DNA from: Candidatus Brocadia sp.
GTDB taxonomy: Bacteria; Planctomycetota; Brocadiia; Brocadiales; Brocadiaceae
DNA length: 64,000 nucleotides
NCBI GenBank assembly: GCA_021646415.1
Contig: SOEU01000010.1
Span: 1 to 64,000, forward strand
Direction: 5' to 3'
Under the pieces are notes generated by a model, which was given only the letters and a program-made list of their open reading frames with translations, was not told the origin of the DNA and did no database searches. The position numbers were made by a program, and so were the translations under genes. Shown here in pieces: positions 128-14,639 of the stretch (positions are counted from its first letter, which is position 1; every line of letters begins with the position of its first letter).

Positions 128-163
128 GTCTCACGTCCTTCCACATCCCTTATTCATCAGGTC
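128..163. repeat. Decayed CRISPR repeat interrupted by 11 bases
   Basis: GTCTCA (128-133) and ATCCCTTATTCATCAGGTC (145-163) are the first 25 bases of the array repeat split by the 11-base insert CGTCCTTCCAC. It lies at the end of the array farthest from the leader, where old repeats usually decay, and touches the IS110 end. No cas-like spacer can be recognised next to it. Confidence 0.6.
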
Positions 164-198
164 GGCCCTGACGGAGATAAAGATAAAGTGAAAAGTGA
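145..198. repeat. 54-bp direct repeat, copy 1 (copy 2 at 689-742)
   Basis: Bases 145-198 and 689-742 are identical over 54 positions. Each copy consists of the second part of a CRISPR repeat followed by a GGCCCTGACGGAGATAAAG-type tail. The two copies bracket the four-helix-bundle gene at 224-586, so either a duplication of the array trailer carried the gene in, or the gene inserted with duplication of its flanks. Confidence 0.75.
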
Positions 199-223
199 TG
201 AGGTAACTATACATAATATATAT

Positions 224-586
224 TCATTCTTTATTCTCTATTTTATTTATCTTCTTGGTCAACATAGCTCGTATTTCCTCACAGATTGCCTCTCTCTGAG
301 CAAAGGTATCTACCGATATATAGTTAAGTCTCTTTAATTTCTCATACCAATCTATACTTTCATTGGCAGATCCTCTGGATACATATAAATAATGCTCATA
401 CTCCTTACCTTTTCGCCTTCCATAACCTTCTGCTATATTTGCACTCACAGAAGAAACGCTCCTTAAGACTTGATTTGATATTATCCTGGCAACTTCGGTA
501 TTTGGAAACTTTTCAGCATCCTTAACAACATCCTCAAATAAACTCATTGCTTTTTGCCATACTACTAAATCTCTGAAATCATTCAT
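224..586 (-). CDS. Four-helix bundle protein (S23/IVS family)
   Basis: A 120-residue protein of the small four-helix-bundle family first known from intervening sequences of 23S rRNA genes (TIGR02436-like). Characteristic features are the opening MNDFRDLVVWQKAM and the central SNQVLRSVSSVSANIAEG followed by GRRKGKEYEHYL. The start at 586 is chosen because AGGAAGGG lies just upstream; an in-frame extension to 646 is a lysine-rich, unlikely N-terminus. The molecular role of this family is not established; the fold is a pentamer-forming helical bundle in solved members. It sits between two copies of a 54-bp repeat inside the decayed distal end of the CRISPR array, which is an unusual location and suggests it arrived as a passenger. 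Confidence 0.85.
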   Translation of the reverse strand: MNDFRDLVVWQKAMSLFEDVVKDAEKFPNTEVARIISNQVLRSVSSVSANIAEGYGRRKGKEYEHYLYVSRGSANESIDWYEKLKRLNYISVDTFAQREAICEEIRAMLTKKINKIENKE

Positions 587-688
587 ATTGATCCCTTCCT
601 TTCTCCTTATTTTATCTTTTCTTTTCACCTTCCTTTTCCCTTTCACTCTGCCCTTTCTCTTTCACTCCGCCTTAAGCGGGCCGTCTCA

Positions 689-742
689 ATCCCTTATTCA
701 TCAGGTCGGCCCTGACGGAGATAAAGATAAAGTGAAAAGTGA
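689..742. repeat. 54-bp direct repeat, copy 2, with truncated CRISPR repeat
   Basis: Identical to 145-198. It is joined on its left to GTCTCA, so 683-707 is the first 25 bases of a CRISPR repeat whose last 12 bases are replaced. The following 81 bases (743-823) are pyrimidine-rich and end in CGGGCC, just as the bases before 683 do, which suggests a tandem duplication of the trailer segment. Confidence 0.75.
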
Positions 743-823
743 GAAAAAATCATTCAGCACGCACTACCATTTTTCATTCTTCCTATCTTTCACTCATCCC
801 TTTATCTCTCACTCCAACGGGCC

Positions 824-1463
824 GTCTCAATCCCTTATTCATCAGGTCAATGATTCACACATGAGGATGGGAATGATGTCCCTCATTTATTTAATGTGTC
901 TCAATCCCTTATTCATCAGGTCAATGATTCACACAGAAAGTCCAGGTATCATGGACACCGCCTACGAAGTCTCAATCCCTTATTCATCAGGTCAATGATT
1001 CACACAGAAAGTCCAGGTATCATGGACACCGCCTACGAAGTCTCAATCCCTTATTCATCAGGTCAATGATTCACACTCAGCAATTGAGGTCTTTGCGGCT
1101 TTATATCGCTCGCGTCTCAATCCCTTATTCATCAGGTCAATGATTCACACTTTATGATTTTTTCGTACTGTATCGGTTGCGCAATCGGTTGCGGTCTCAA
1201 TCCCTTATTCATCAGGTCAATGATTCACACGCCAAGGCACTCCACTTCAGTTCGCGGTTGATACTGAAAAAGTCTCAATCCCTTATTCATCAGGTCAATG
1301 ATTCACACGAAAGCGAATTGAGGGCACTCCAGGCAGACAGCGAGACGCGTCTCAATCCCTTATTCATCAGGTCAATGATTCACACGGGAGGGAGCAGCAT
1401 TATCAAGGTGGCGGTCTAGTACGGGCGTCTCAATCCCTTATTCATCAGGTCAATGATTCACAC
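824..1463 (-). CRISPR. CRISPR array, 9 repeats of 37 bp, 8 spacers
   Basis: Nine identical 37-bp repeats begin at 824, 898, 969, 1040, 1114, 1194, 1272, 1349 and 1427 (plus strand starts GTCTCAATCCCTTATTC, ends ATGATTCACAC). Spacers are 34-43 bp. Read on the minus strand the repeat ends in ATTGAGAC, which fits the 8-base 5' crRNA handle (ATTGAAAC type) left by Cas6, so transcription is inferred to run right to left, as for the cas genes. The leader is therefore at 1464-1671 and the decayed repeats at 128 and 683 are the old end. Two neighbouring spacers, 935-968 and 1006-1039, are identical, so one repeat-spacer unit was duplicated. No spacer source can be named from this sequence. Confidence 0.97.
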
Positions 1464-1671
1464 GGTACCCCTTTCAACCATAATAAACACAAATACTTAC
1501 AAGGCCATTTTCTGTAACCTCCTTTTTTGAGCACCATCTTTTTCTATCACCTCCTTTAAATTTGGACAAAAATTTATTATAATTATCCACAAACACATTA
1601 TTTACAGTTTTTTCTGTAACCACCCCCTCTTTTTGCAACGTTTTCGAGTTTCGTTAACCCATTGCAGTACC
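1464..1671 (-). promoter_or_regulatory. CRISPR leader with likely promoter
   Basis: An AT-rich, gene-free 208-bp stretch between the newest repeat and the end of cas2. On the minus strand it has a TATAAT-like -10 box (plus 1576-1581), which would start transcription about 100 bases before the first repeat; the matching -35 is weak. A 12-bp direct repeat, TTTTCTGTAACC, occurs at 1508-1519 and 1610-1621 and could be a leader protein site. Leader identity rests on position and repeat orientation. Confidence 0.65.
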
Positions 1672-1947
1672 TTACACGATGTAGACATCCTCCACTCTGG
1701 TTACTTTCCCCTGCCCGATAACGTGAATAACCCTTTCACAATTTGCACAGATGGTATATATTCTCACACTGTCGTCCTCCTGCAAGACAATTTTCTTAAT
1801 TCTGGTCACCATTTTGTTCAGGAGACTGCTATCCAATATACATTCAAAGACGCTATATTGCACCCTGTCTCCAAAATCCTTAAGCACCTTTGCCAGTTTC
1901 GTTCTCCTTCCGGTGTCAGGTATGTCATAAGAGACGAGATACAGCAT
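1672..1947 (-). CDS. cas2: CRISPR adaptation protein Cas2
   Basis: A 91-residue Cas2, the structural partner that holds the Cas1 integrase dimers together during spacer insertion. It begins MLYLVSYDIPDTGRRTKLAK, the usual first strand with the conserved Asp followed by the arginine-lysine helix, and has the FECILD strand typical of the ferredoxin-like fold. The start at 1947 gives the normal family length; the open frame continues upstream to 2103 but overlaps cas1 and lacks Cas2 features. cas1 ends one base upstream, so the pair is cotranscribed. The leader and array follow directly downstream. Confidence 0.95.
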   Translation of the reverse strand: MLYLVSYDIPDTGRRTKLAKVLKDFGDRVQYSVFECILDSSLLNKMVTRIKKIVLQEDDSVRIYTICANCERVIHVIGQGKVTRVEDVYIV

Positions 1948-1948
1948 A

Positions 1949-2947
1949 TCATACCTCCTGCAGAAAAGGGATATATCGTTCATTATTCTGAATACTGGCA
2001 GCCAGTTTTTCCGCCTGAAAACGAAAACACTTTCGAAACGTGGTATTTTCTTTGGTTTCTTGTCGAATAAACTCGCGATTGAGCATGCCCTCGTATTCCA
2101 CAAAATAACGCTTCAATGCCTCACGCCTGAGATATACTCCTTCATTGGGGTTTGAGTAAAAGTCCTCCTGTCCGAAAACCCTGTTGTTTACGAGATTGAG
2201 CGTAAGCCGGTCGGCTACTGGGGCTCGAAATTCCTCCATGAGGTCAGAAGCGAGGGATGCCCGCCCATAGTCAATACTATGATAGTAAGCAAGGTATGGA
2301 TCAAAACCCAGTCCATCGAGGAGCGATGATAGTTCACTAAAAATCATAGTATAGCTCAGGGAAAGGAGGGCATTGACGGGATCGGTGGACGGATGCTTCT
2401 TTCTTCCCGGAAAACTGAATTCACCCAGGATCATTCTGCCAAAGGCATCAAAATAAACCTTCGCCGCATTCCCTTCCATGCCAAACAACTGATTGATATA
2501 GGTAGCCGATTCCACATCTTCAAGCTTTGTTTCAAGAGCGGCAATCTCCGTTTCAAGGTGAAGCTTAGGATGATTATACGAAAACAGGCGGACAACATTA
2601 TAGCAATTCATGATCTTCCCAGCCACAATTGCCTTTGAGAGCATGAGCCTGAAGTCATTATCCCAATATTTCTTGAACTGTTGGAGACGCAGGGTAATGT
2701 TTTTGGGTGTAGGAGAGGTTATCTGGCCTATGAGTTTGCCCGTTCGTGTGAGAATGGCCATCTCTATGCCATGTTCAAAGAGTTCATGCACGGCCTGAGT
2801 GGTAAACTGGACGTTCCCGAAGATAAGCACGGCATCTATTTTGTGACACTGCACTTCAAGAAGAATGTTATCATCCTTCTGGACAATAAGCCGGTCACCG
2901 CTCTTGCGTAAAACAGAGTTCTGTTCGGTCAGATAAAGGTTAGCCAC
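1949..2947 (-). CDS. cas1: CRISPR integrase Cas1
   Basis: Cas1 is the metal-dependent integrase that inserts new spacers at the leader end. The protein is about 332 residues, the usual size, so it is not fused to the reverse transcriptase upstream. Counting from the alternative TTG at 2953, the catalytic residues are Glu160 (GMEGNAAK), His225 (YYHSIDYGR) and Glu240 (DLMEEFRAPVADR). I choose GTG at 2947 because AAAGG lies 8 bases upstream and the product then begins like other Cas1 proteins (ANLYLTEQNSVLRK). It sits between the DUF559 gene and cas2 in the same direction. The adaptation module therefore is RT, DUF559, Cas1, Cas2. Confidence 0.95.
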   Translation of the reverse strand: MANLYLTEQNSVLRKSGDRLIVQKDDNILLEVQCHKIDAVLIFGNVQFTTQAVHELFEHGIEMAILTRTGKLIGQITSPTPKNITLRLQQFKKYWDNDFRLMLSKAIVAGKIMNCYNVVRLFSYNHPKLHLETEIAALETKLEDVESATYINQLFGMEGNAAKVYFDAFGRMILGEFSFPGRKKHPSTDPVNALLSLSYTMIFSELSSLLDGLGFDPYLAYYHSIDYGRASLASDLMEEFRAPVADRLTLNLVNNRVFGQEDFYSNPNEGVYLRREALKRYFVEYEGMLNREFIRQETKENTTFRKCFRFQAEKLAASIQNNERYIPFLQEV

Positions 2948-3087: not shown

Positions 3088-3492
3088 TTATTTCTTTACC
3101 TCCCCTTTGTCCCCTCCTTGCAAAGGAGGGGATTGAGGGGTGGTTTTTGTAATAATATCGTGTAAGACACCTTTTATATTTTTGACTATGTCATTATTTG
3201 TATATCGTAACACCTTAATTCCCAGAGCCTCTATCTCTTTTTGTCTTTGCCCATCAGAAACAATCCGAGGTTCATAGTAATGAACCCCACCATCAACTTC
3301 GATTGCCAATCTGCGTTCCGGGCAATAAAAATCGACCGTATAATTATTAATCCCATATTGCCTTCTGAATTTTAAACCGTTAATTTGTTTGCCTTTTAAT
3401 TTTGACCAAAGTAATATTTCCGCTTTTGTCATCTTCTTTCGTAAATACTGCCTTTTCTTTGTATGTTCTTTTTTGTTAAACATTTCTGTCAT
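3088..3492 (-). CDS. DUF559 (Vsr-like) endonuclease-domain protein
   Basis: A 134-residue protein with the DUF559 fold, related to very-short-patch-repair and restriction endonucleases. Visible landmarks are LRKKMTKAEILLW, LKFRRQYGINNYTVDFYCPE and LAIEVDGGVHY, where VDFYC and EVDGG carry the acidic metal-binding residues. DNA cleavage is inferred from the family, not proven. It lies between the reverse transcriptase and cas1 and may have been picked up by the adaptation module or be a passenger. Its last 18 residues (TTPQSPPLQGGDKGEVKK) are encoded by a dispersed palindromic repeat, and the purine-rich stretch before ATG 3492 that serves as ribosome-binding site comes from a second copy of the same repeat. 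The true C-terminus may thus have been replaced. Confidence 0.8.
   Translation of the reverse strand: MTEMFNKKEHTKKRQYLRKKMTKAEILLWSKLKGKQINGLKFRRQYGINNYTVDFYCPERRLAIEVDGGVHYYEPRIVSDGQRQKEIEALGIKVLRYTNNDIVKNIKGVLHDIITKTTPQSPPLQGGDKGEVKK
3097..3147. repeat. Dispersed palindromic repeat (REP-like), copy a
   Basis: Contains the 9-bp stem CCCCTCCTT/AAGGAGGGG (3111-3131) followed by GATTGAGGGGTGG. The same unit occurs at 3502-3547, 13515-13548 and, shortened, 13993-14027. Here it forms the coding sequence for the end of the DUF559 protein. Confidence 0.8.
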
Positions 3493-3501
3493 ATTTAACA
3501 A

Positions 3502-3547
3502 CCTCCCCTTTGTCCCCTCCTTGCGAAGGAGGGGATTGAGGGGTGGT
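3502..3547. repeat. Dispersed palindromic repeat, copy b
   Basis: Near-identical to copy a, with stem CCCCTCCTT/AAGGAGGGG separated by GCG. It ends 10 bases upstream of the DUF559 start and on the minus strand supplies GGGGAGG as its ribosome-binding site. A third, weaker palindrome of the same kind (CCCTCCTTCG..GGAGGGG) follows at about 3569-3590. Confidence 0.75.
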
Positions 3548-3639: not shown

Positions 3640-4581
3640 TTAGGATGAGGATGGGCTATTACTTCGCTTCTTGAAATAATCATCTAAGTTTAATGGACCA
3701 GGATAAAACAGGACTTTTTTCTCCTTCTTTGGGCGATCAAAAGGTACCATAATCATGCTTCGCACGAAGGTAACGCCGAGGAATTTGAATCCGTCTTCAA
3801 AGTTAAGTATTTGTTCTTCATCCAGCTTTAAAAGAAGTTTTCCAAGGGCCTGTTTTGATAATTGAAGTGCATTCTTTGCCTCTTCTGGTTTTTTGCAAAG
3901 AATGACAAAGTCATCAGAATACCTGATTAATCTATATCCTTTCTTTAACAATGCCTCATCCAATTCGTCCAGAAACAAGTTGGCCAGGATGGGAGAAATG
4001 GGTGAACCCTGCGGAATACCTTTTTCTAATACAGTTAATGATTCACCATCCCAGATTTCGGCCTTCAGCCAGAGTTCTATAAGTTTTTGGATATAGGGAA
4101 TAGAGACATATTTTTTGAATTTTGCCAGCAGAAGGTCATGATCCACGCTGTCAAAAAAGGCGTCTATGTCGGCATCCACTATCCAATGATAACCATGATC
4201 ATAATATTCCTTAATCCTATAAACAGCCTGTTTCACTGAACGACCTTTCCGATAAGCAAAACTGCAATCCTCGAATTCCCGTTCAAGAATAGGCTCAATG
4301 GCTTGTAAAACGGCTGCCTGGACAACCCTGTCTCTCACCGTCGGAATGCACAGTGCCCTAGCCTCACCATTCCCCTTGTCAACCAGGATCTTCAGCAGCG
4401 GGAGGGGTGAGTACGTTTGCTCAGCCAGTTCCCTTTGCATGATTCTGAGGTTTATATCCAGATTGCCCTCATATTGTTCAATAGTAACTCCATCCACCCC
4501 CGCACAACCGTGATTCTCCTTAACAGCCTGAAAGGCGGAATACCGGGATGTAAGGTTAATAGCGAAGTTGTTCATGCTCAA
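3640..4581 (-). CDS. CRISPR-associated reverse transcriptase, stand-alone
   Basis: A 313-residue reverse transcriptase of the group II-intron-like lineage. Finger and palm blocks are in order: LCIPTVRDRVVQAAVLQAI (77-95), FEDCSFAYRKGRS (103-115), DADIDAFFDSVDH (136-148), GIPQGSPISPILANLFLD (188-205) and the catalytic YSDD (221-224). There is no intron-maturase thumb, no DNA-binding or endonuclease domain, and no intron RNA around it. It starts inside the last codons of the Csx3-like gene (ATGA overlap at 4578-4581) and is followed by DUF559, cas1 and cas2, so it belongs to the CRISPR operon. In characterised type III systems RT-Cas1 fusions or partners let RNA be captured as spacers; the same role is inferred here but with separate polypeptides. 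Confidence 0.9.
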   Translation of the reverse strand: MSMNNFAINLTSRYSAFQAVKENHGCAGVDGVTIEQYEGNLDINLRIMQRELAEQTYSPLPLLKILVDKGNGEARALCIPTVRDRVVQAAVLQAIEPILEREFEDCSFAYRKGRSVKQAVYRIKEYYDHGYHWIVDADIDAFFDSVDHDLLLAKFKKYVSIPYIQKLIELWLKAEIWDGESLTVLEKGIPQGSPISPILANLFLDELDEALLKKGYRLIRYSDDFVILCKKPEEAKNALQLSKQALGKLLLKLDEEQILNFEDGFKFLGVTFVRSMIMVPFDRPKKEKKVLFYPGPLNLDDYFKKRSNSPSSS

Positions 4582-4820
4582 AATGGATTGTGGTCAAATA
4601 TCAACACGTCTCCGGTTACAGGAGACCGATATGTCAGTTTCTTCGCCTTGCCATGTAGCGCATGGGCAACAGCCAGATAAAGCCACACAGGGGCTTTGCC
4701 CGTTAAAACTATTTCATTGCCTTCGCCAGCCAGGTCAACGACTTTTTTAATATAATTTGACAAGTTTGAAAGCTTGGCGGTTTCAGAGAAAAATGTGCTC
4801 AAGTCTATTTCTTTAACCAT
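4578..4820 (-). CDS. csx3: Csx3-like protein, candidate ring nuclease
   Basis: A short protein (80 residues from ATG 4820; a TTG at 4838 would add six) resembling Csx3. The diagnostic part is VLTGKAPVWLYLAVAH followed by YRSPVTGDVLIFDH, matching the Csx3 pattern of G-K/R-x-P-I/V-W-L, A-H and a DP-x-x-G-x-V-V strand. Csx3 proteins studied elsewhere degrade cyclic tetra-adenylate, so this one may switch off the signal made by Cas10. It is shorter than the roughly 110-residue archaeal Csx3. It begins 11 bases after the membrane CARF gene stops and its stop overlaps the start of the reverse transcriptase, which suggests translational coupling. Function is inferred from the motif and location. Confidence 0.72.
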   Translation of the reverse strand: MVKEIDLSTFFSETAKLSNLSNYIKKVVDLAGEGNEIVLTGKAPVWLYLAVAHALHGKAKKLTYRSPVTGDVLIFDHNPF

Positions 4821-4830
4821 CGATATTGAA

Positions 4831-5724
4831 TCAACCAACCTTTGCTATATGTATCTTTGAGTAAAGCTCTAACAAATATTCACCCATTTTATCTAATATG
4901 ATTCCTGGTTTTATAGCAAGCGGAATAACGTTGTATTTTCCACTTTGCTGTTCTACATATTGAATATCTATAGAGGAATCTAGTGCACCGAAAATCAATC
5001 CAATAGTAATTGATTTGGTTCCACCTGAAATGTCCACAATAATATCGGTGCTTTTTAAGCTTATATGGTTCAGATTTTCTTTTGAATAAATTTTAGAGAG
5101 TAAAGATTTTACTTGTTCAATCAATTCAAGTTCGCCACTTTCAGTTAAGTGGCAAATATTCTTGTGTCCATCTCGATCATAAATCTTTGCATTAGGCATG
5201 AATTTATTGAGAAATTCTTTAATACATTCCCTGTAAGGCATACTATCTTTAGTTGCTAATGGCCATACATATTGAAGAACATCTTTATGGTGATATAATC
5301 CCTTAAACAGTTGGCCAATACTCTGTTCTTTATATAGCAGGCTTATATCAGGTTGTTTTGTGGCTAAAATTATTTTATTTATTTCTTCAGGTGGTTTCTG
5401 TGGTTTACTCAAGGACAAAACCATTCCCCTATGTTGATTCACAACCTGCGAAGTAGTCTCGTCCATAGAACGCTGATTTAAAATTGGTTTGAATTTTAGA
5501 TATATATAACTTATCCATGCACAAAAAGAAAAAAACGGAAACAGATTAATGAATATGTTCAACCAATTGAGGACAAGAGGTCTTTCCGCAAAAACAGTCA
5601 ATAGCAGTTTCCAAAATTCGTATAGACCATTAGTCGCTATGCCTAACCAGGCAAGAGTACCAATACCGGTAATAATAATCTTAGGAGTAATTCTGTCGAT
5701 TCCTAAAATCTTTAGTGCTGTCAT
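4831..5724 (-). CDS. Membrane protein with CARF-like domain, candidate effector
   Basis: A 297-residue protein with two hydrophobic helices near the N-terminus (about residues 14-33 and 52-77) and a soluble Rossmann-like part from about 98. MVLSLSKPQKPPEEI (101-115) looks like the first strand and loop of a CARF sensor, and IIVDISGGTKSITIGLIFGA (228-247) carries the D-x-S-G-G-T-K motif that contacts cyclic oligoadenylate in CARF proteins such as Csm6 and Csx1. No HEPN, nuclease or protease motif is present, so the membrane part is the only visible output. The gene overlaps csm5 by ATGA and is followed at once by the Csx3-like gene. By analogy with Cam1, a membrane CARF protein that depolarises cells, I infer a cOA-gated membrane effector. 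Two helices and length differ from Cam1. Confidence 0.75.
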   Translation of the reverse strand: MTALKILGIDRITPKIIITGIGTLAWLGIATNGLYEFWKLLLTVFAERPLVLNWLNIFINLFPFFSFCAWISYIYLKFKPILNQRSMDETTSQVVNQHRGMVLSLSKPQKPPEEINKIILATKQPDISLLYKEQSIGQLFKGLYHHKDVLQYVWPLATKDSMPYRECIKEFLNKFMPNAKIYDRDGHKNICHLTESGELELIEQVKSLLSKIYSKENLNHISLKSTDIIVDISGGTKSITIGLIFGALDSSIDIQYVEQQSGKYNVIPLAIKPGIILDKMGEYLLELYSKIHIAKVG

Positions 5725-7073
5725 TTTTCATTCTCCACTATTAATTTCACCCATCCTAGCGTGTCCTGTTTGTTGTTTAATAGGTTAACAACCCGCCTTG
5801 TCTTTGGGAAATTACCTGTGTAACTAGTATTTTTCGTGGCATGGCATAGGATATTATCATAAAGGGTTTTATCTTTGTCTTTGACTAACAGTCCCATCGT
5901 AATACTAAAATAACCTTCGTTTTTCCCTATGCGGATAGCAGGGCTGGTTGGGGTATTCTGATGCTTGATACTATGAAGCATAGTAATTATTTGTGGCTTA
6001 TTGAGATTTGTAAAATAGTCTATTTCCTCTCTTAAAAGCCTATCTGTAAATTGGTAACAACACTGAAATACATTTTCTATATCTGAAACCACCCACTTTT
6101 GTTCAGGAGTAAAACCGAGTTTATCAAGAACAGTTCTATTTGTTCTGTTGTTCTCCAATTGAGAGAACTGACACGTAAAGATTTGATCTTGTGTACAGAG
6201 TTCCTGGAAAAGAATGATATCTGTTAAATTACCTTGTGTGTCTCGTTTTTTGGTATTTTCTACCTTCATACTCGAAACAAATAAACATTGAAAAGGGTCT
6301 TTTAACTCGCTGTCTCCTACTTGAAAAACTTTCAGAAGATCATACTTTGCATCACTGTTGTTATTTACCCTGAAAAGCTTGTTTTGCAAGTTCTCTTCAA
6401 TTTTGCCCACTTCTTTTATAAAAATATTTTTAATGTCATTTATTCTTATTTTTGGATATTCTTCATGCCGGATTTTCTTTGTTATCTCATTCAGTCTCTT
6501 TTCACCGAATAGTCTTTTTAATTCCTCTTTTTGAATTTGTTTAAGTTCCGATATTGATAAGTAACTATTACCCTTTCTACCACAAGACGAAAGAATCAAA
6601 AATGTATTTCTAAATTTATTTTGAAGTTCCAACAACTGTTTTTTTAACCATACATAATTTTCATTGCTGCCTAATAAATGATATGCTATTGCCGTCCTTA
6701 TTGCCCCTTTTATTTCTGTACCAGGAATATAAGGTCTATTGTTTTGCTTGATAAAGCAATCAATATCACGCAGATTTCTTTCGGCGGAATAGTTGTTGAG
6801 GGTATATATGGCAACTTTTTTGAATTCGTTTAAAAGTTGAGGCTTGTTGAGTTCAGACTTACAAAATTTAAACCAACTTGGATACTTCTCTGATACAACC
6901 CAATCCATAAAAGATTGCAAGTCTTTCTGGTTTAATATCGTTTTTATTCGATCAAAGTTCATAACAAATACTCTCTTTGGAGTTGAGAAAATATCTTCAA
7001 CGTATGACAGCCCGTTATACTTCTCTCCATTCCCAATATGTATTGGAGATAAGGTTTTAATTTGAAGTTTCAT
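5721..7073 (-). CDS. csm5: Type III-A effector subunit Csm5
   Basis: A 450-residue RAMP protein that caps the crRNA 3' side of the Csm complex. It opens MKLQIKTLSPIHIGNGEKY, the usual Csm5 start with the SPIHIGNGE strand-loop, and has the glycine-rich RAMP loop PYIPGTEIKGAIRTAIAYHL near residue 115. Near the end, SPAIRIGKNEGYFSITMGLL is typical of Csm5 C-terminal parts. It overlaps csm4 by four bases (ATGA) upstream and the membrane CARF gene by four bases downstream. Besides complex assembly, Csm5 recruits crRNA-trimming nucleases in studied systems. Length is slightly above average for the family. Confidence 0.93.
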   Translation of the reverse strand: MKLQIKTLSPIHIGNGEKYNGLSYVEDIFSTPKRVFVMNFDRIKTILNQKDLQSFMDWVVSEKYPSWFKFCKSELNKPQLLNEFKKVAIYTLNNYSAERNLRDIDCFIKQNNRPYIPGTEIKGAIRTAIAYHLLGSNENYVWLKKQLLELQNKFRNTFLILSSCGRKGNSYLSISELKQIQKEELKRLFGEKRLNEITKKIRHEEYPKIRINDIKNIFIKEVGKIEENLQNKLFRVNNNSDAKYDLLKVFQVGDSELKDPFQCLFVSSMKVENTKKRDTQGNLTDIILFQELCTQDQIFTCQFSQLENNRTNRTVLDKLGFTPEQKWVVSDIENVFQCCYQFTDRLLREEIDYFTNLNKPQIITMLHSIKHQNTPTSPAIRIGKNEGYFSITMGLLVKDKDKTLYDNILCHATKNTSYTGNFPKTRRVVNLLNNKQDTLGWVKLIVENEK

Positions 7074-8125
7074 CTTGAACCTCCTATATTGCCAAAGACA
7101 GGAAAGGCAAGTCCGTTCTGATAAATCTTCTGTCTGTTTATTTCTTTTACAACAGGAATTCTTCCGTAAAATTCTCTTTTTTCGTTAGCTTCAAAACATG
7201 AGCCTTCTTTCAGATACATGACCTTAGACTTCCATACATCTTTACCTTTGAATTCTGCCTCTGAATCAACCTTTGAGCGATACGGGAATATTTCATAAAA
7301 CATGGCTGGACTCTCTAGATTTATCTGTTTTACATCAGGAATATACCTGGAAAGGGTGAAAAATTTGCGTGAGTTGTCATCTCCTATGGACACTTCGTTC
7401 AAAATATCTATCTTAAACCTTCCCTTCCCAACAGAGCGATTACCGCCAATACCCTTGTCTTTGAGATAACGGAAAACTGGCCTAAAGAAATCTATCTCAT
7501 TAGTTTTCATTAAAAAGTGTAGTTTAAATGCAGGACTTGTAAAATATTCTTGCTGATAAAAGGTTTGTCCTTCTCCACCGGTGGACATAGTCAATCGATC
7601 TGTGGAATTTTTCTGTACAGCCATACTTTTTGATCCTGGGTTTAACTTTTCAAAAATAGTCTTATATTCTTCATCATCCATAAGTAATTTGCCAGTAAGT
7701 TTAATACCTCCATTATAAAAAATCTTAAACAATTCACCTTCAGAAGTACCGTTCAATATTTTCATAAATAAAGAGGCCGATACATACTCTGCCTTCTTGA
7801 ATTCCTTATAACGGGAGATAATACACACTATCTCTTTCTTTGTCTGCGCCATCTTGTTAATATTTGAGGCAGAAATGCATTCTAAGATTGGCCTTGGATA
7901 AAAAGGTATTGCCGTGTTTGCTTCTTCAATGTATGGAAACGTGGACGAGATAACGAATTTTGGATTTAACTGGAATTCATGCAGTATATCCACCAATGAG
8001 TTTTTATCTGAGCTATCTTGGTATATCCTTCTTATTCCCCAGCAGATCGCACCAAATAGGGTATCTGACGAAGGAAGGCTAGAAAAAGAGGAAGAAGGAG
8101 TAAGTTTTATTTGATAAATTTTCAT
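7070..8125 (-). CDS. csm4: Type III-A effector subunit Csm4
   Basis: A 351-residue RAMP protein that binds the crRNA 5' handle and contacts Cas10. Landmarks are MKIYQIKLTPSSSFSSLPSS and DTLFGAICWGIRRIY at the start, a central dense basic/hydrophobic region, and the glycine-rich GIGGNRSVGKGRFKI loop (about residues 225-240) shared by Csm4/Cmr3 proteins. Its stop overlaps the csm5 start and its start overlaps the csm3 stop, each by ATGA, so the complex subunits are probably made in step. Confidence 0.92.
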   Translation of the reverse strand: MKIYQIKLTPSSSFSSLPSSDTLFGAICWGIRRIYQDSSDKNSLVDILHEFQLNPKFVISSTFPYIEEANTAIPFYPRPILECISASNINKMAQTKKEIVCIISRYKEFKKAEYVSASLFMKILNGTSEGELFKIFYNGGIKLTGKLLMDDEEYKTIFEKLNPGSKSMAVQKNSTDRLTMSTGGEGQTFYQQEYFTSPAFKLHFLMKTNEIDFFRPVFRYLKDKGIGGNRSVGKGRFKIDILNEVSIGDDNSRKFFTLSRYIPDVKQINLESPAMFYEIFPYRSKVDSEAEFKGKDVWKSKVMYLKEGSCFEANEKREFYGRIPVVKEINRQKIYQNGLAFPVFGNIGGSR

Positions 8126-9006
8126 TTCTGCGCCTTTATTGGGAAAATAGTATTAAAATTTATATGAATATCTCTTGGCGTTTCGTTACCGCTCTGGTTA
8201 ACCACAGTCTCATCTTTGCCTTGGATATAATAAGCCATTTCTCTTTTATAAATTTTTATCTTTTCAAAAACTACCTTCCCAGAACCTCTGCTTCCACTTC
8301 CGCCAAGGGCACTGTCCTCAAGGAGCATCATCCCTTCAAAGACCTTTTTAATTTTCTGTTCATCCTCCTCTTTATAAATATCAAAAAGCATCTCAACTTC
8401 AAATACTGAATCGGCTGTAACCCTTTCCATCGGTCTCGGATTTGCTTCAGACGTCAGTCTGTTGATAGTATTTTCAGTTTTTATTTCCGTGTAAATTTTT
8501 TCGCCGAAGTTGATTTCCCACCTCTCAACAGTATCTTTTTTAGGAAAACTATCACGCACAGTAAGGCGCGTTGGTTCTTTAACTGCCGATGCTGCCGAAC
8601 AGCCAAATACGATACAGACATCACACGTACCACAGTCACATGGCTTTATGGAAGGGGACATTCGATCAAGCTCTTCTTGTAATTTATTCTTTTTTACAGG
8701 ATTGTTTTCACCCGAGATTTTATCTATCAATGCTTTTCTCTTTGTTTCAAATTCATCAATTTGGTATTCAGTACAGGTTAAATTGTTTGCTCTTTTTGTG
8801 GTCCACTCAAGCAAACTTCTTATCTTCCCTTTTAGTGACGAGCCTGGTATATAGGGATAACCTGTAATAGGGTCTTTAATTACTGGGTTTTCCATCCCCC
8901 CTATATCAAATCCCTCATCCGTTCCACCAATATGTAATCCAGTAATACAACGCATATCTCCCTTGATGATATATTTGCCAGAAAATTTGTAACTATTGTT
9001 TGACAT
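8122..9006 (-). CDS. csm3: Type III-A backbone ribonuclease Csm3
   Basis: A 294-residue RAMP protein that forms the Csm backbone and cuts target RNA every six bases. GLHIGGTDEGFDIGG and PVIKDPITGYPYIPGSSLKG are the family signature. In Streptococcus thermophilus Csm3 the cutting residue is Asp33 in the loop before SPVIKDP; the aligned residue here is Glu39 (GGMENPVIKDP), so the chemistry at the active site may be altered. A cysteine group, CDCGTCDVCIVFGC near residue 125, is a likely zinc site. The start at 9006 is set by GGGAGGAG seven bases upstream; a longer frame to 9054 lies inside csm2 and is rejected. It overlaps csm2 by 14 bases. Confidence 0.94.
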   Translation of the reverse strand: MSNNSYKFSGKYIIKGDMRCITGLHIGGTDEGFDIGGMENPVIKDPITGYPYIPGSSLKGKIRSLLEWTTKRANNLTCTEYQIDEFETKRKALIDKISGENNPVKKNKLQEELDRMSPSIKPCDCGTCDVCIVFGCSAASAVKEPTRLTVRDSFPKKDTVERWEINFGEKIYTEIKTENTINRLTSEANPRPMERVTADSVFEVEMLFDIYKEEDEQKIKKVFEGMMLLEDSALGGSGSRGSGKVVFEKIKIYKREMAYYIQGKDETVVNQSGNETPRDIHINFNTIFPIKAQK

Positions 9007-9442
9007 GAGATACTCCTCCCTTTTTATCCATTTCTCTTTTCTTATGATATGCAATGACTGCCGTTAACAAGTTTACAAATCTTTTAAAATCCACAACTGT
9101 CTTAATCTTGTTACTAGACAAACATATCTTCATAACTTCATAAAAGTCTCTTGTTATTAAGCCCCTTCCGTAACTATAAGCAAGTTCGGGCATAAGTGGA
9201 TAAAACCCTCTGGGGTCAACCGGATCATTATTTTCTCTACCTTTTAGTTCTACTGTTTCTATCTTTTTTATATGTCCAAAAAACTTCCTTATCTGGGTAA
9301 ATTTCATTTCCCCCCTTTCTCCAGCTATAATATCAGCAATTTTCCCTTCAAGAGCATAATCCTCAGGTTCTAGCACGGAAAGTGTTTTAAGGCTTTCAAG
9401 ATGCTTTTTTACATCTCCCATTGAATTAAAAGAAATCATCAT
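8993..9442 (-). CDS. csm2: Type III-A small subunit Csm2
   Basis: A 149-residue helical protein, the small subunit that lines the crRNA-target groove opposite Csm3. The C-terminal helices with FYEVMKICLSSNKIKTVVDFKRFVNLLTAVIAYHK match the Csm2 pattern, and KFTQIRKFFGHI is the usual first helix with basic residues. The start overlaps the cas10 stop (TAATG at 9442), preceded by AAGGGGG. A second ATG follows immediately, so the protein may begin one residue later. Confidence 0.9.
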   Translation of the reverse strand: MMISFNSMGDVKKHLESLKTLSVLEPEDYALEGKIADIIAGERGEMKFTQIRKFFGHIKKIETVELKGRENNDPVDPRGFYPLMPELAYSYGRGLITRDFYEVMKICLSSNKIKTVVDFKRFVNLLTAVIAYHKKREMDKKGGVSHVKQ

Positions 9443-11859
9443 TAATCCCCCTTTCTTGATTTCAACAAGGCATAGCTTGCTGGTATTCTAATTTTTCTAA
9501 AATATCCGTTGCCAACCGTTAGTAATTTCTCTTTGAGATATTCTTTCAATTTTATTTCTCCACTCGTTATTTTTGCATCCTTTTTAATATTCCTTTCCAT
9601 TTGATAAATTAATGCTGGAATATAATTGAGGTCATCCCCTGATTCATACTGTTTATGTTTCCTTAAAAGTCCATGAATAAAACCCCTAGGCAAACGATCT
9701 TCTTTTTCAACAGCGGTAATTGCCTCAAAAAACATTTCTCCGCAATCGAGAAGATTATCAAAACCAATAGATTCTCCATCCATCCACTCAACTGTTTCTC
9801 CAAAAATAGTTATTCGCCTTCTCCCTTTATCCTTTGACGATTCAAGTGCATCACCAGCAGCCTCTACCGCCAAGCTTATAGGATACTTGGGTTTGCAAAA
9901 AAATATACCGGCAGAGATATTTATATCAACATTATTACAGGTATATACTTTAAATTCGTCACGAATCTTCTTTGCAAGAACTGGCATCTCACTCCACGGA
10001 CCAACAATCATGAGGTCATCTCCACCAGAATATACAATATAAAAGATGTTTTCTATCTTATCGGCTTTTTCTCCCCAACCAGCCTTATGGGCATCCTTTT
10101 TCCATTCTTCAAAAACTTTTTTACAAATATTATTCAGGTATCCACCAAAAAACCAATCCATCCCCCTGCTTAAGGCAGCAATTCGGGATATAGATTTTTG
10201 TCCTTCAGGAAGTCCAATGGCAAATATAAGTCCAAGGTAATCCACATCCATCTTAAGGATGCCAATCCTCTTATCGCCTATGCTCATATCTGCTATAGTC
10301 TCAAAGGTTAAAACCCTATCCTTTAGTGCCTGCTTTTTGCCATCTTCCTCTTCTTCTGTTTCTTGCTCAAAATCCTCCTTTGCTATAGGGGCGGCATTAC
10401 CAATGAATCTGAAATTGCCAATAGTCTCATTCATCATTTGAATAGTTAAAACATCTGGAAGTTCATTGTATTTGTCAGTATATTCATTTGCTGATAAAAG
10501 ATAAACATTTCCAAACTCACCAAACTCTATGTCAACACCCTTCATCGAGTTATTGGGTCTTGAGAGAAAGGCTAAATAGCAAGTTTTGGGCAACTTGCTC
10601 CCTATTTCATGGTGTTTTTTGCATAATATACATACCTCATCATTTTCCCCTTTTTTTACAAGTGTTGTATTGCAAGACCTGCAAACTCTAATCTCTTCCT
10701 CTGGTTTTCTATCTTCCAACCAAAACCAATTCTCACCCAAAAACTCTTTACTCTTCCTTTTCTTAACCAATGATAACTTGTCATCTAGAGTCTTTAAGAG
10801 ATTAGAATAGTCCTTGAGGTCATTACGGTCGGCACTTACTGAAACCAGCACGAGTCCTAATTCACCGTTGTATTCTTTCAACAGCCATGTATTTATCTGG
10901 GTTAATATTTTACCAATATCATGTTGAATTTTATCTGTATTAGGTATCAGCATTTCAAATCTGCCACCACCGCAAAAGAGGAGATGAGGCGTTGCCAGAA
11001 ATAATTTATTAAGGATGTAAGTAGCCATTACTTCTTGCAGTAATACTAAATAAAATGAACGCCCTCTTAACCTCTTAGAAATACCACCAATACCTTGAGT
11101 GCTTGTTATTTTGTAAATAAATTTCTGGATGCCTGAAATATCACCACTAAGAAGCAAAAATTCATTCCCATCTTTCTCACCACTTAACTTTTTAACAAAT
11201 AAACATCCTGCTATTGCAGAGGTTGTTTTAAGATGGTCAAATAGAGAAATGTCCGACTCACTTTTGTAAGCTTCACTCGGTATGCACCATGTATATTTTT
11301 GGAGAAGTGAATAAAGAGTGTTTAAATAGGAATGTGTGTTAAATGCTAGGATATTTTTGACTTCCAAAGCAAAGTCTTCCCACAATTTTTTATATTCATC
11401 TTCAAGATTTTGTTCAGGGAGCTTACAAGGAAATAAATCATCCTTTTTTAGGGATAGAGGTTTCAGGTGGTGGGAATATTCATTTATTTCCATCCCATTA
11501 TTGTAAAGAGATATTTTTCCAAAAACTGACCAAAGTCGTTCTTTAGATGGGTCTCCAGTTTCTTCTGCATCAAGACTAATTCTTTCCATACCAGCAGATA
11601 AGGCATCTGCCAAGGTAATAAATTCAGCATGGTCATGATGTGTGTTTATTGCAAACGCTATTTTCTCTTTTTCTTCCTCTCCAAATAGAATTCGTATCTT
11701 TTTAGCAAAATACTTTTGGTAACATTTTAGTCCAAGAGAGGCATGATCTCTAGCTTTTCTTTCTTCTTTGTCTAATCCTCTTTGATAAAACTTCCCAATA
11801 TCATGGAGCAGTCCTGCAAGCACTACCGTCTGATATTCCCTTTTCTTTTTTTCGTCCAT
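9442..11859 (-). CDS. cas10: Cas10/Csm1, cyclic oligoadenylate synthase
   Basis: The 805-residue large subunit of the type III-A complex. An N-terminal HD nuclease domain shows LLHDIGKFYQRG (His19-Asp20) and THHDHAEF (73-80). LSGDISGIQKFIY (237-249) opens the first palm, a four-cysteine zinc finger lies at 393, 396, 410 and 413, and the second palm has YSGGDDL with GGDD at 612-615, the site that makes cyclic oligoadenylate from ATP when target RNA is bound. Both HD and GGDD residues are intact, so single-strand DNA cutting and second-messenger synthesis are both expected. The products would be read by the membrane CARF protein and cleared by the Csx3-like protein downstream. csm2 follows with overlapping stop/start. 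Confidence 0.96.
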   Translation of the reverse strand: MDEKKKREYQTVVLAGLLHDIGKFYQRGLDKEERKARDHASLGLKCYQKYFAKKIRILFGEEEKEKIAFAINTHHDHAEFITLADALSAGMERISLDAEETGDPSKERLWSVFGKISLYNNGMEINEYSHHLKPLSLKKDDLFPCKLPEQNLEDEYKKLWEDFALEVKNILAFNTHSYLNTLYSLLQKYTWCIPSEAYKSESDISLFDHLKTTSAIAGCLFVKKLSGEKDGNEFLLLSGDISGIQKFIYKITSTQGIGGISKRLRGRSFYLVLLQEVMATYILNKLFLATPHLLFCGGGRFEMLIPNTDKIQHDIGKILTQINTWLLKEYNGELGLVLVSVSADRNDLKDYSNLLKTLDDKLSLVKKRKSKEFLGENWFWLEDRKPEEEIRVCRSCNTTLVKKGENDEVCILCKKHHEIGSKLPKTCYLAFLSRPNNSMKGVDIEFGEFGNVYLLSANEYTDKYNELPDVLTIQMMNETIGNFRFIGNAAPIAKEDFEQETEEEEDGKKQALKDRVLTFETIADMSIGDKRIGILKMDVDYLGLIFAIGLPEGQKSISRIAALSRGMDWFFGGYLNNICKKVFEEWKKDAHKAGWGEKADKIENIFYIVYSGGDDLMIVGPWSEMPVLAKKIRDEFKVYTCNNVDINISAGIFFCKPKYPISLAVEAAGDALESSKDKGRRRITIFGETVEWMDGESIGFDNLLDCGEMFFEAITAVEKEDRLPRGFIHGLLRKHKQYESGDDLNYIPALIYQMERNIKKDAKITSGEIKLKEYLKEKLLTVGNGYFRKIRIPASYALLKSRKGD

Positions 11860-13556: not shown

Positions 13557-14639
13557 CTATAAAATCTCATACTTCCCCAACCCAAAGGATGTCCCTTTCC
13601 CCACATGCACATACTCTCCTAACTTTAGCAAGGGTATAAATTCATTCAAATCGCCCTCATATGAAACGGTACCCGTAACACCACCCAGCGACATCCATTC
13701 TTCCTGCCGTGTGGAATAGCGCTTCCAGTCAAACCACTGAATGTCCGATGCTGTCTGCCTTACTGTCTTTGCTTTTTCAATAAGACCTTTAAAATCTAGT
13801 TCCAGCTTTTCGCCACAATGGAAATAAGATAAAGAGGAGATACGACGCAAGAGGTTTCTGATAAGGACATGGAATTCGATTTTGTCGGTTATATGGCCAT
13901 CAAAACGCAGGCGTAGCGGGGTTAATAGCGAAATGGTTATTTTGTTGTTATGGTTATTTCCATGAGAACTACCCTGTTGAGGCAAGTTTTTGACCCCGCC
14001 TTTATCCTCCCCTTCGTAAGGGGAGGAAACTGCGCTGTTTTTACCTTGCAATGATGAGAAAGTTTTATTGCATTTTGCCATAGAGCGGTTTTCCATATTT
14101 TCCTGGACAAATTGGCGGGCTTGTATGATGGGATAATGGTTTGTGAGTGTTTGGTCTTTACTGTTGTAAATCTGAACAGACTCGTTTTCTAAACCGATGC
14201 CTTCCACCTTTAGCAGGTCGTATTTACCCCTGCCCTGTCCGACCCCCTGTTTTCCCAGTTCGGTAAAGGTATAGATAAAATAGGGCAGGTAATCGATGGC
14301 TTGACCTATGAGGATCAGGTGAAAGGTGAATGCTTCGCCTGGTGCGAAGGATTGTTTCTTGTCTGAAGGCGGTTCAATAACAAAGGGGTGGGGTACTTTT
14401 GGATAAAGCCGAAGTATCTCGGTATCTTGTGGAGGAGGGGTCTCAAAGATGTACGAATAAATGCACTTTTGTTTCAGGAGACACTCATCACATCCCTTGC
14501 CTTTTATCACACAGACAACACGTTTAAAGGCATATCCAAAACCGCCACGAAAGGCAGCGCCTTTATAGGTAGGAAAGCGTATGTGCTCTTTGGCGCAGAC
14601 GGTAAATCTGAACTTTGCCAGTCGGAATGTATTGAGCAT
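13557..14639 (-). CDS. cas6: CRISPR repeat endoribonuclease Cas6
   Basis: A 360-residue Cas6, the enzyme that cuts the CRISPR transcript inside each repeat to leave an 8-base 5' handle. The PF10040-type layout is visible: FPTYKGAAFRGGFGYAFKR near residue 23, the cysteine group CDECLLKQKC, and the C-terminal glycine-rich GEYVHVGKGTSFGLGKYEI. It lies 1.7 kb upstream of cas10 in the same direction and is separated from it by two nucleotidyltransferase modules. Residues about 205-217 (SSPYEGEDKGGVK) are encoded by a dispersed palindromic repeat inserted in frame, so the protein carries an extra flexible loop. No active-site histidine can be assigned with certainty by eye. Confidence 0.92.
   Translation of the reverse strand: MLNTFRLAKFRFTVCAKEHIRFPTYKGAAFRGGFGYAFKRVVCVIKGKGCDECLLKQKCIYSYIFETPPPQDTEILRLYPKVPHPFVIEPPSDKKQSFAPGEAFTFHLILIGQAIDYLPYFIYTFTELGKQGVGQGRGKYDLLKVEGIGLENESVQIYNSKDQTLTNHYPIIQARQFVQENMENRSMAKCNKTFSSLQGKNSAVSSPYEGEDKGGVKNLPQQGSSHGNNHNNKITISLLTPLRLRFDGHITDKIEFHVLIRNLLRRISSLSYFHCGEKLELDFKGLIEKAKTVRQTASDIQWFDWKRYSTRQEEWMSLGGVTGTVSYEGDLNEFIPLLKLGEYVHVGKGTSFGLGKYEIL
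13993..14027. repeat. Palindromic repeat inside cas6, copy d
   Basis: CCCCGCCTTTATCCTCCCC and TTCGTAAGGGGAGG are a shortened copy of the dispersed repeat. It lies within the cas6 reading frame without breaking it. Confidence 0.75.

What the first reader, a model, noticed from the sequence alone, without database searches (positions are those of the whole stretch)
3640..4581. Stand-alone reverse transcriptase between Csx3-like gene and cas1 in type III-A
Characterised RNA-to-spacer systems mainly use RT-Cas1 fusions. Here the RT is separate, keeps all catalytic blocks including YSDD, has no intron partner, and starts inside the Csx3-like gene. It may let the array record RNA. The RT start overlap with an effector-regulator gene is unusual because it joins signalling control and adaptation.
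Basis: partly seen in the sequence, partly recalled or inferred. Interest (0 to 1): 0.7.

Follow-up and report, generated by a model that had tools for sequence, protein, structure and literature searches.

The report
Stand-alone CRISPR reverse transcriptase beside cas1
In an anammox bacterium a gene for an RNA-copying enzyme sits next to the genes that write new entries into the CRISPR immune memory; this is a member of an already described kind of system, it probably lets the cell store pieces of RNA, and its closeness to a signalling gene is ordinary operon packing.

Summary
A 313-aa reverse transcriptase (RT) with all catalytic blocks (YSDD) and no intron RNA lies between csx3 and cas1 of a complete type III-A locus in a Candidatus Brocadia-like anammox genome. 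Three corrections apply. A DUF559 gene flanked by high-copy palindromic repeats separates RT from cas1. The RT probably starts at an ATG 2 nt after csx3, so there is no real overlap. Csx3 pairs with the upstream CARF-transmembrane effector, not with the RT. In a tree of 62 RTs the protein falls in a 22-member clade (support 100/99) of stand-alone RTs linked to cas1, sister to RT-Cas1 fusions and outside group II introns. The model lacks the thumb/X domain, as in the solved Cas6-RT-Cas1. RT and Cas1 divergence correlate (r 0.83). Stand-alone CRISPR RTs are published (Toro 2017/2018; Silas 2017), so this is a new member of a known kind. RNA-to-spacer function stays inferred: the window's own spacers match nothing. 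Arrays of the clade hold spacers matching host coding genes (lysS, flgK, murC, a porin, groEL; 5 of about 128), but an RT-less control array also has one, so that hint is not decisive.

The parts
3088..3501 (-). DUF559 (Vsr-like endonuclease) gene between RT and cas1
   Evidence: PF04480 E=4.3e-30
3089..3144 (.). palindromic repeat copy flanking the DUF559 gene; many related copies in this genome
3492..3547 (.). second flanking repeat copy, 91% identical
1949..2947 (-). cas1, start GTG at 2947 by homology (ORF opens at 2953); E160, H225 and E240 kept
   Evidence: PF01867 E=2.4e-87
1672..1947 (-). cas2
   Evidence: PF09827 E=1.8e-24
4578..4838 (-). csx3 (Crn3 ring-nuclease family)
   Evidence: PF09620 E=3e-6; PADLOC CARF_HEPN_CSX3 E=2.7e-38
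4831..5724 (-). CARF-transmembrane effector (Cam1-like), overlaps csx3 by 8 nt
   Evidence: PADLOC CARF8 CARF_TM E=3.7e-23, CARF_2M E=5.5e-23
5721..7073 (-). csm5
7070..8125 (-). csm4
8122..9054 (-). csm3
8993..9442 (-). csm2
9442..11859 (-). cas10/csm1 with HD and GGDD motifs
   Evidence: TIGR02578 E=4.2e-182; motifs read
13557..14639 (-). cas6
824..1481 (-). CRISPR array: 9 complete 37-nt repeats, 8 spacers (7 distinct), leader at the high-coordinate end
164..822 (.). two palindromic-ended inserts in the trailer repeats, one carrying a 23S rRNA IVP gene (224-646, -)

Best explanation
This is the RT of a type III CRISPR adaptation module in which RT, Cas1 and Cas2 are separate proteins. It descends from group II intron-type RTs, has lost the intron RNA and the thumb/X domain, and is inherited with its Cas1. 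Most likely RT, Cas1 and Cas2 form one complex in trans, equivalent to the RT-Cas1/Cas2 complex. Cas1-Cas2 joins an RNA or RNA/DNA fragment to the leader-end repeat and the RT makes the DNA strand, so that spacers can come from transcripts as well as DNA. The Csm complex uses the resulting crRNAs, makes cyclic oligoadenylate through Cas10, and the CARF-membrane protein responds while Csx3 degrades the signal. Shown here: gene content, intact active sites, phylogeny, linkage, co-divergence, missing thumb. Inferred: complex formation, RT activity, RNA origin of spacers, effector order.
For: Tree of 62 RTs: 22 stand-alone RTs form one clade (100/99), sister (91/89) to RT-Cas1 fusions of Methylococcaceae, Desulfobulbaceae and Nitrospirae; 10 of 11 labelled group II intron RTs group apart (98/97). 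The RT precedes cas1, usually with cas2, wherever the contig reaches, in Brocadia, Scalindua, Anammoxibacter, Nitrospira, Nitrospinota and desulfobacteria. In relatives without an insert RT and cas1 abut or overlap by a few nt. RT and Cas1 distances: r=0.83, Mantel p=2e-4 over 15 loci. Model pLDDT 88; aligns to GsI-IIC RT residues 2-292 of 417, i.e. fingers and palm only; the solved Cas6-RT-Cas1 also lacks thumb/X (PMC8102632). Array repeats of the clade are alike. Spacers matching host genes in sister arrays.
Against: No protospacer found for the window's own spacers. The self-spacer rate in the clade (5 of about 128) is above the 0.4% reported for spacers in general (PMC6990116) but not significantly above RT-less control arrays of the same repeat family (1 of 65). 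The DUF559 insert separates RT from cas1 here and may weaken co-expression. Only 9 repeats with a duplicated unit and inserts in the trailer: the array may be slow or inactive.
Confidence: 0.8

Rival explanations
1. The RT is an adaptation-module protein but works mainly on DNA (fill-in or DNA-templated synthesis of prespacers), so the array does not record RNA to a useful degree.
For: Cas6-RT-Cas1 copies both RNA and DNA templates, and the authors discuss a mainly DNA-polymerase role (PMC8102632). An RT-less module of the same family also holds a self-spacer, so capture of host sequences does not need RT.
Against: RT-Cas1 enzymes studied so far acquire RNA spacers (PMC11014452, PMC6990116). 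Self-matches in RT arrays include genes usually strongly expressed (groEL, lysS, porin).
Confidence: 0.25
2. The RT is a decayed leftover of an RT-Cas1 system and is no longer functional; cas1-cas2 acts alone.
For: DUF559 insert between RT and cas1, short array with a duplicated unit, inserts in trailer repeats. Relatives show broken RTs (L052, L065, L087).
Against: The frame is intact with every catalytic block conserved, 84% identical to another Brocadia. Separate RT is the state of the whole clade, not a break in one genome.
Confidence: 0.1
3. The RT is a group II intron or other mobile-element RT that happens to lie in the locus.
For: Nearest general family model is group II intron RT, below its cut-off (288 of 300 bits).
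Against: Tree placement, no intron RNA (positive control), no thumb/X, conserved linkage to cas1 in many species.
Confidence: 0.02

Closest known systems
CRISPR-associated RTs separate from Cas1 (Toro et al. 2017 clades 1, 4, 5, 7, 9; clade 13 of Toro 2018; Silas et al. 2017)
   Same: Separate RT beside cas1-cas2 in type III loci, group II intron lineage without intron RNA. By host range (Planctomycetia, Delta/Gammaproteobacteria) and mixture of separate and fused members, clade 4 is the likely home.
   Different: Clade number not tested: reference sequences of the published tree were not available. DUF559 insert between RT and cas1 here.
RT-Cas1 fusions, e.g. Marinomonas mediterranea and the sister fusions of Methylococcaceae found here
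   Same: RT lineage, Cas1-Cas2 partners, type III loci, csx3 upstream in some sister loci (L053, L071, L073).
   Different: RT and Cas1 are separate polypeptides in the window and in its whole clade.
Stand-alone RT-cas1-cas2 on cyanobacterial plasmids (Microcystis NIES-2481 p1; Gloeothece PCC 7424 pP742401)
   Same: Same gene order RT, cas1, cas2; RT of about 310-325 aa.
   Different: Different branch of the RT tree, about 42% identity.
Group II intron reverse transcriptase GsI-IIC (6AR1)
   Same: Fingers and palm: Z 30.7, rmsd 2.2 over 280 residues, 33% identity.
   Different: No thumb/X domain, no intron RNA, different branch.

Membership tests
CRISPR adaptation-module RT (type III, group II intron lineage) | RT domain with intact catalytic triad | tested here: met
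CRISPR adaptation-module RT (type III, group II intron lineage) | branches with CRISPR-linked RTs rather than intron RTs | tested here: met
CRISPR adaptation-module RT (type III, group II intron lineage) | adjacent or fused to cas1 with cas2 in a type III locus, conserved across species | tested here: met
CRISPR adaptation-module RT (type III, group II intron lineage) | no intron RNA | tested here: met
CRISPR adaptation-module RT (type III, group II intron lineage) | no thumb/X domain | tested here: met
   with PMC8102632
CRISPR adaptation-module RT (type III, group II intron lineage) | acquires spacers from RNA | not testable with these tools
   spacer matches inconclusive:
Toro clade 4 | groups with the published clade 4 sequences | not tested
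   published sequences not held; host range fits PMC5541045 Table 1
RT-Cas1 fusion | RT and Cas1 in one polypeptide | tested here: not met
group II intron RT | encoded in a group II intron RNA, with maturase/X domain | tested here: not met
diversity-generating retroelement RT | template/variable repeat pair and DGR RT clade | not tested
   no DGR RT placed in the tree; linkage to cas1-cas2 makes it unlikely
Crn3/Csx3 ring nuclease (neighbour gene) | Csx3 domain | tested here: met
   activity not tested

The most novel reading that the evidence does not exclude
Modules of this stand-alone RT clade regularly write host messenger RNA into their arrays, mostly in the harmless sense orientation (lysS, flgK, murC and groEL sense; a porin antisense). 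These arrays would then act in part as a record of the host's own transcripts, without RT-Cas1 fusion.
Probability: 0.25. Interest if true: 0.65.

Novelty: new member of a known kind. Interest (0 to 1): 0.33.

Why it matters
The papers read describe function for RT-Cas1 fusions; none of them tested a stand-alone RT. A compact three-protein module (RT, Cas1, Cas2) kept separate across several phyla is a good test of whether fusion is needed for RNA-to-spacer recording, and might be an alternative part for recording transcripts. Environmental arrays of the clade could be mined for spliced or processed RNA junctions, which would settle RNA origin without cultures.

Tried and rejected
Idea that RT was cut off a fusion by the DUF559 insert: rejected as a recent event, since all 22 clade members are separate and uninserted relatives have abutting genes. 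Idea that csx3 and RT form a special signalling-adaptation pair: rejected. Spacer origin: phage records gave only a conserved lysS stretch matching a sister-array spacer; three window spacers had no exact 24-nt match in viral contigs; the RT family was not found in viral contigs. Self-spacers as proof of RNA capture: weakened by the RT-less control (1 of 65; Fisher p about 0.67). G003 was left out of the control as ambiguous because its cas1 is of the RT-linked kind. Paper searches for Brocadia with CRISPR and RT found nothing. Cas6-RT-Cas1 chains (7KFT/7KFU) matched by sequence but are not among the 50 structure rows shown; the paper reports a rotated palm, so no conclusion is drawn.

Full report
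WHAT IS THERE. The minus strand of window 1.67-14.6 kb carries cas6, cas10/csm1, csm2, csm3, csm4, csm5, a CARF-transmembrane gene, csx3, an RT, cas1 and cas2, then a CRISPR array of nine complete 37-nt repeats. The crRNA strand repeat ends in GGGATTGAGAC, so the leader is beside cas2. The closest named relative of the RT is in Candidatus Brocadia sp. AMX1 (82%; 84% over residues 9-307). The window is thus from a Brocadia-like anammox planctomycete (inference from relatives; the genome itself is unnamed).

THE RT. It has 313 aa if counted from TTG 4581, 311 from ATG 4575. It matches RVT_1 (1.6e-37) and both a stand-alone RT model and the RT half of an RT-Cas1 model. The catalytic aspartates, QGSP and YSDD are kept; D138, Q191, G192, D223 and D224 are invariant over 28 relatives. 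No Rfam family is found in the first 16 kb; the same search finds intron RNA at four of six intron-type RT loci of this and related genomes. The AlphaFold2 model (pLDDT 88) matches the GsI-IIC RT over fingers and palm only, chain residues 2-292 of 417. The solved Cas6-RT-Cas1 also lacks thumb/X (PMC8102632).

THE START AND THE OVERLAP. The sequence at the csx3-RT junction is ATTTTGAGCATGAACAAC. Relatives read TTTTGAGTATG, TTTTAAATATG and TTTTAACGATG. The ATG 2-3 nt after the csx3 stop is conserved and the TTG is not. The gene pair is tightly packed but does not overlap. The csx3 gene overlaps the CARF-transmembrane gene upstream by 8 nt. Across 61 genomes of the order, 15 csx3 places were found: 8 are near the RT, 7 are not, and 13 are near a CARF or TM gene of effector type (some of these assignments rest on weak similarity or on reading the sequence). 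So csx3 belongs to the effector side.

RELATIVES. Searches found the same RT in nine genomes of the order, the window's own included, the others at 61-84% identity, and 42 named loci overall, relatives and more distant. In the 22 clade members of the tree the RT is separate from Cas1, and cas1 (mostly with cas2) follows in all whose contig reaches that far. Effectors differ (Csm-type in the window, Cmr-like in G001 and G008), so the adaptation module moves apart from the effector, as Silas et al. 2017 reported. Without an insert the RT and cas1 abut or overlap by a few nt. At this junction several genomes carry small elements: DUF559 (window), GxxExxY/PDDEXK_3 (G001, G005, G008, G012), a RAYT-type transposase (G027).

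PHYLOGENY. In a maximum-likelihood tree of 62 RTs the stand-alone clade has support 100/99 and is sister (91/89) to RT-Cas1 fusions. The labelled group II intron RTs lie outside this group. Pairwise distances of RT and Cas1 correlate, r=0.83, Mantel p=2e-4. Two named plasmids carry separate RT, cas1 and cas2 in another branch. Published work already describes separate RTs (PMC5541045 Table 1; PMC6013744; PMC5513706).

SPACERS. The window's 7 distinct spacers match nothing in order genomes outside the own array or in phage records; three tested as 24-mers match no viral contig. About 128 spacers of arrays next to RTs of this clade were searched against their own genomes. Five match a chromosomal coding gene outside the array: lysS 36/36 sense (G005), flgK 36/36 sense (G037), murC 40/40 sense (Desulfocapsa), a porin 38/38 antisense and groEL 38/39 sense (both Nitrospira) (lysS, flgK, murC and groEL named from the reading of the sequence, the porin by Pfam). 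One more G005 spacer resembles a gene read as pyruvate phosphate dikinase in two other Brocadia-genus genomes, antisense, 8 and 10 mismatches of 45. Control arrays of the same repeat family next to RT-less modules gave 1 of 65 (a polysaccharide chain-length-type gene, sense). The rate is above the 0.4% reported for all spacers (PMC6990116; binomial p about 2e-4, computed there with 135 as the count) but not significantly above the control (Fisher p about 0.67). MAG contamination could inflate or hide such matches.

VERDICT. Real, intact, and a member of a known kind. RNA recording is likely by homology and untested. The claimed joining of signalling and adaptation is not supported.

Noticed in passing
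window 224-646 and trailer ends of arrays in G002, G004, G009, G021, G027 (C7), L039, L041, L052: A 23S rRNA IVP (four-helix-bundle) gene lies within about 1.3 kb of a CRISPR array in 9 of 16 genomes against 0.15 expected (p 3e-15), on the trailer side wherever orientation was read, with and without RT. Altae-Tran 2023 (PMC10910872) lists IVP in its figure of CRISPR adaptation-module associations.
   Followed up: partly
window 139-860: Two palindromic-ended elements (one with the IVP gene, one 115 nt without it, DNA fold z -3.6) interrupt trailer repeats, each with the 25-nt repeat part GTCTCAATCCCTTATTCATCAGGTC repeated beside it.
   Followed up: partly
window 3089-3547: DUF559 gene between two copies of a palindromic repeat whose relatives give dozens of matches in this genome; possibly a small mobile element.
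   Followed up: partly
L027, L028, L029, L034, L031, window: RT-cas1 junction: The RT-cas1 junction carries different small nuclease or transposase genes in different genomes (GxxExxY, DUF559, RAYT), like an insertion hotspot.
   Followed up: partly
L041 6359-7915 (same in G056, L085): One 518-aa ORF in Scalindua joins a Y1/IS200-type transposase to the CRISPR RT; neighbours have the two as separate genes.
   Followed up: partly
L037 6132-6977: Nitrospinota protein with a class III nucleotidyl cyclase domain (PF00211) joined to a Csx3 domain (42% to the window's Csx3), directly upstream of the RT; a separate csx3 also present.
   Followed up: partly
L203 (G021:C1 about 2106300-2112500): Array of about 88 repeats with spacers that overlap each other in register and several hairpin-plus-T-run spacers resembling transcript ends; no RT seen nearby.
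   Followed up: no
window 13984-14039 within cas6: The cas6 gene contains an in-frame insert related to the same palindromic repeat family.
   Followed up: no
window 898-1039: One repeat-spacer unit is duplicated exactly in tandem.
   Followed up: no
L091 (G020, seven near-identical places): 335-aa RT, 41% to the window RT, in seven places of one complete genome, without an Rfam intron match at L091.
   Followed up: no
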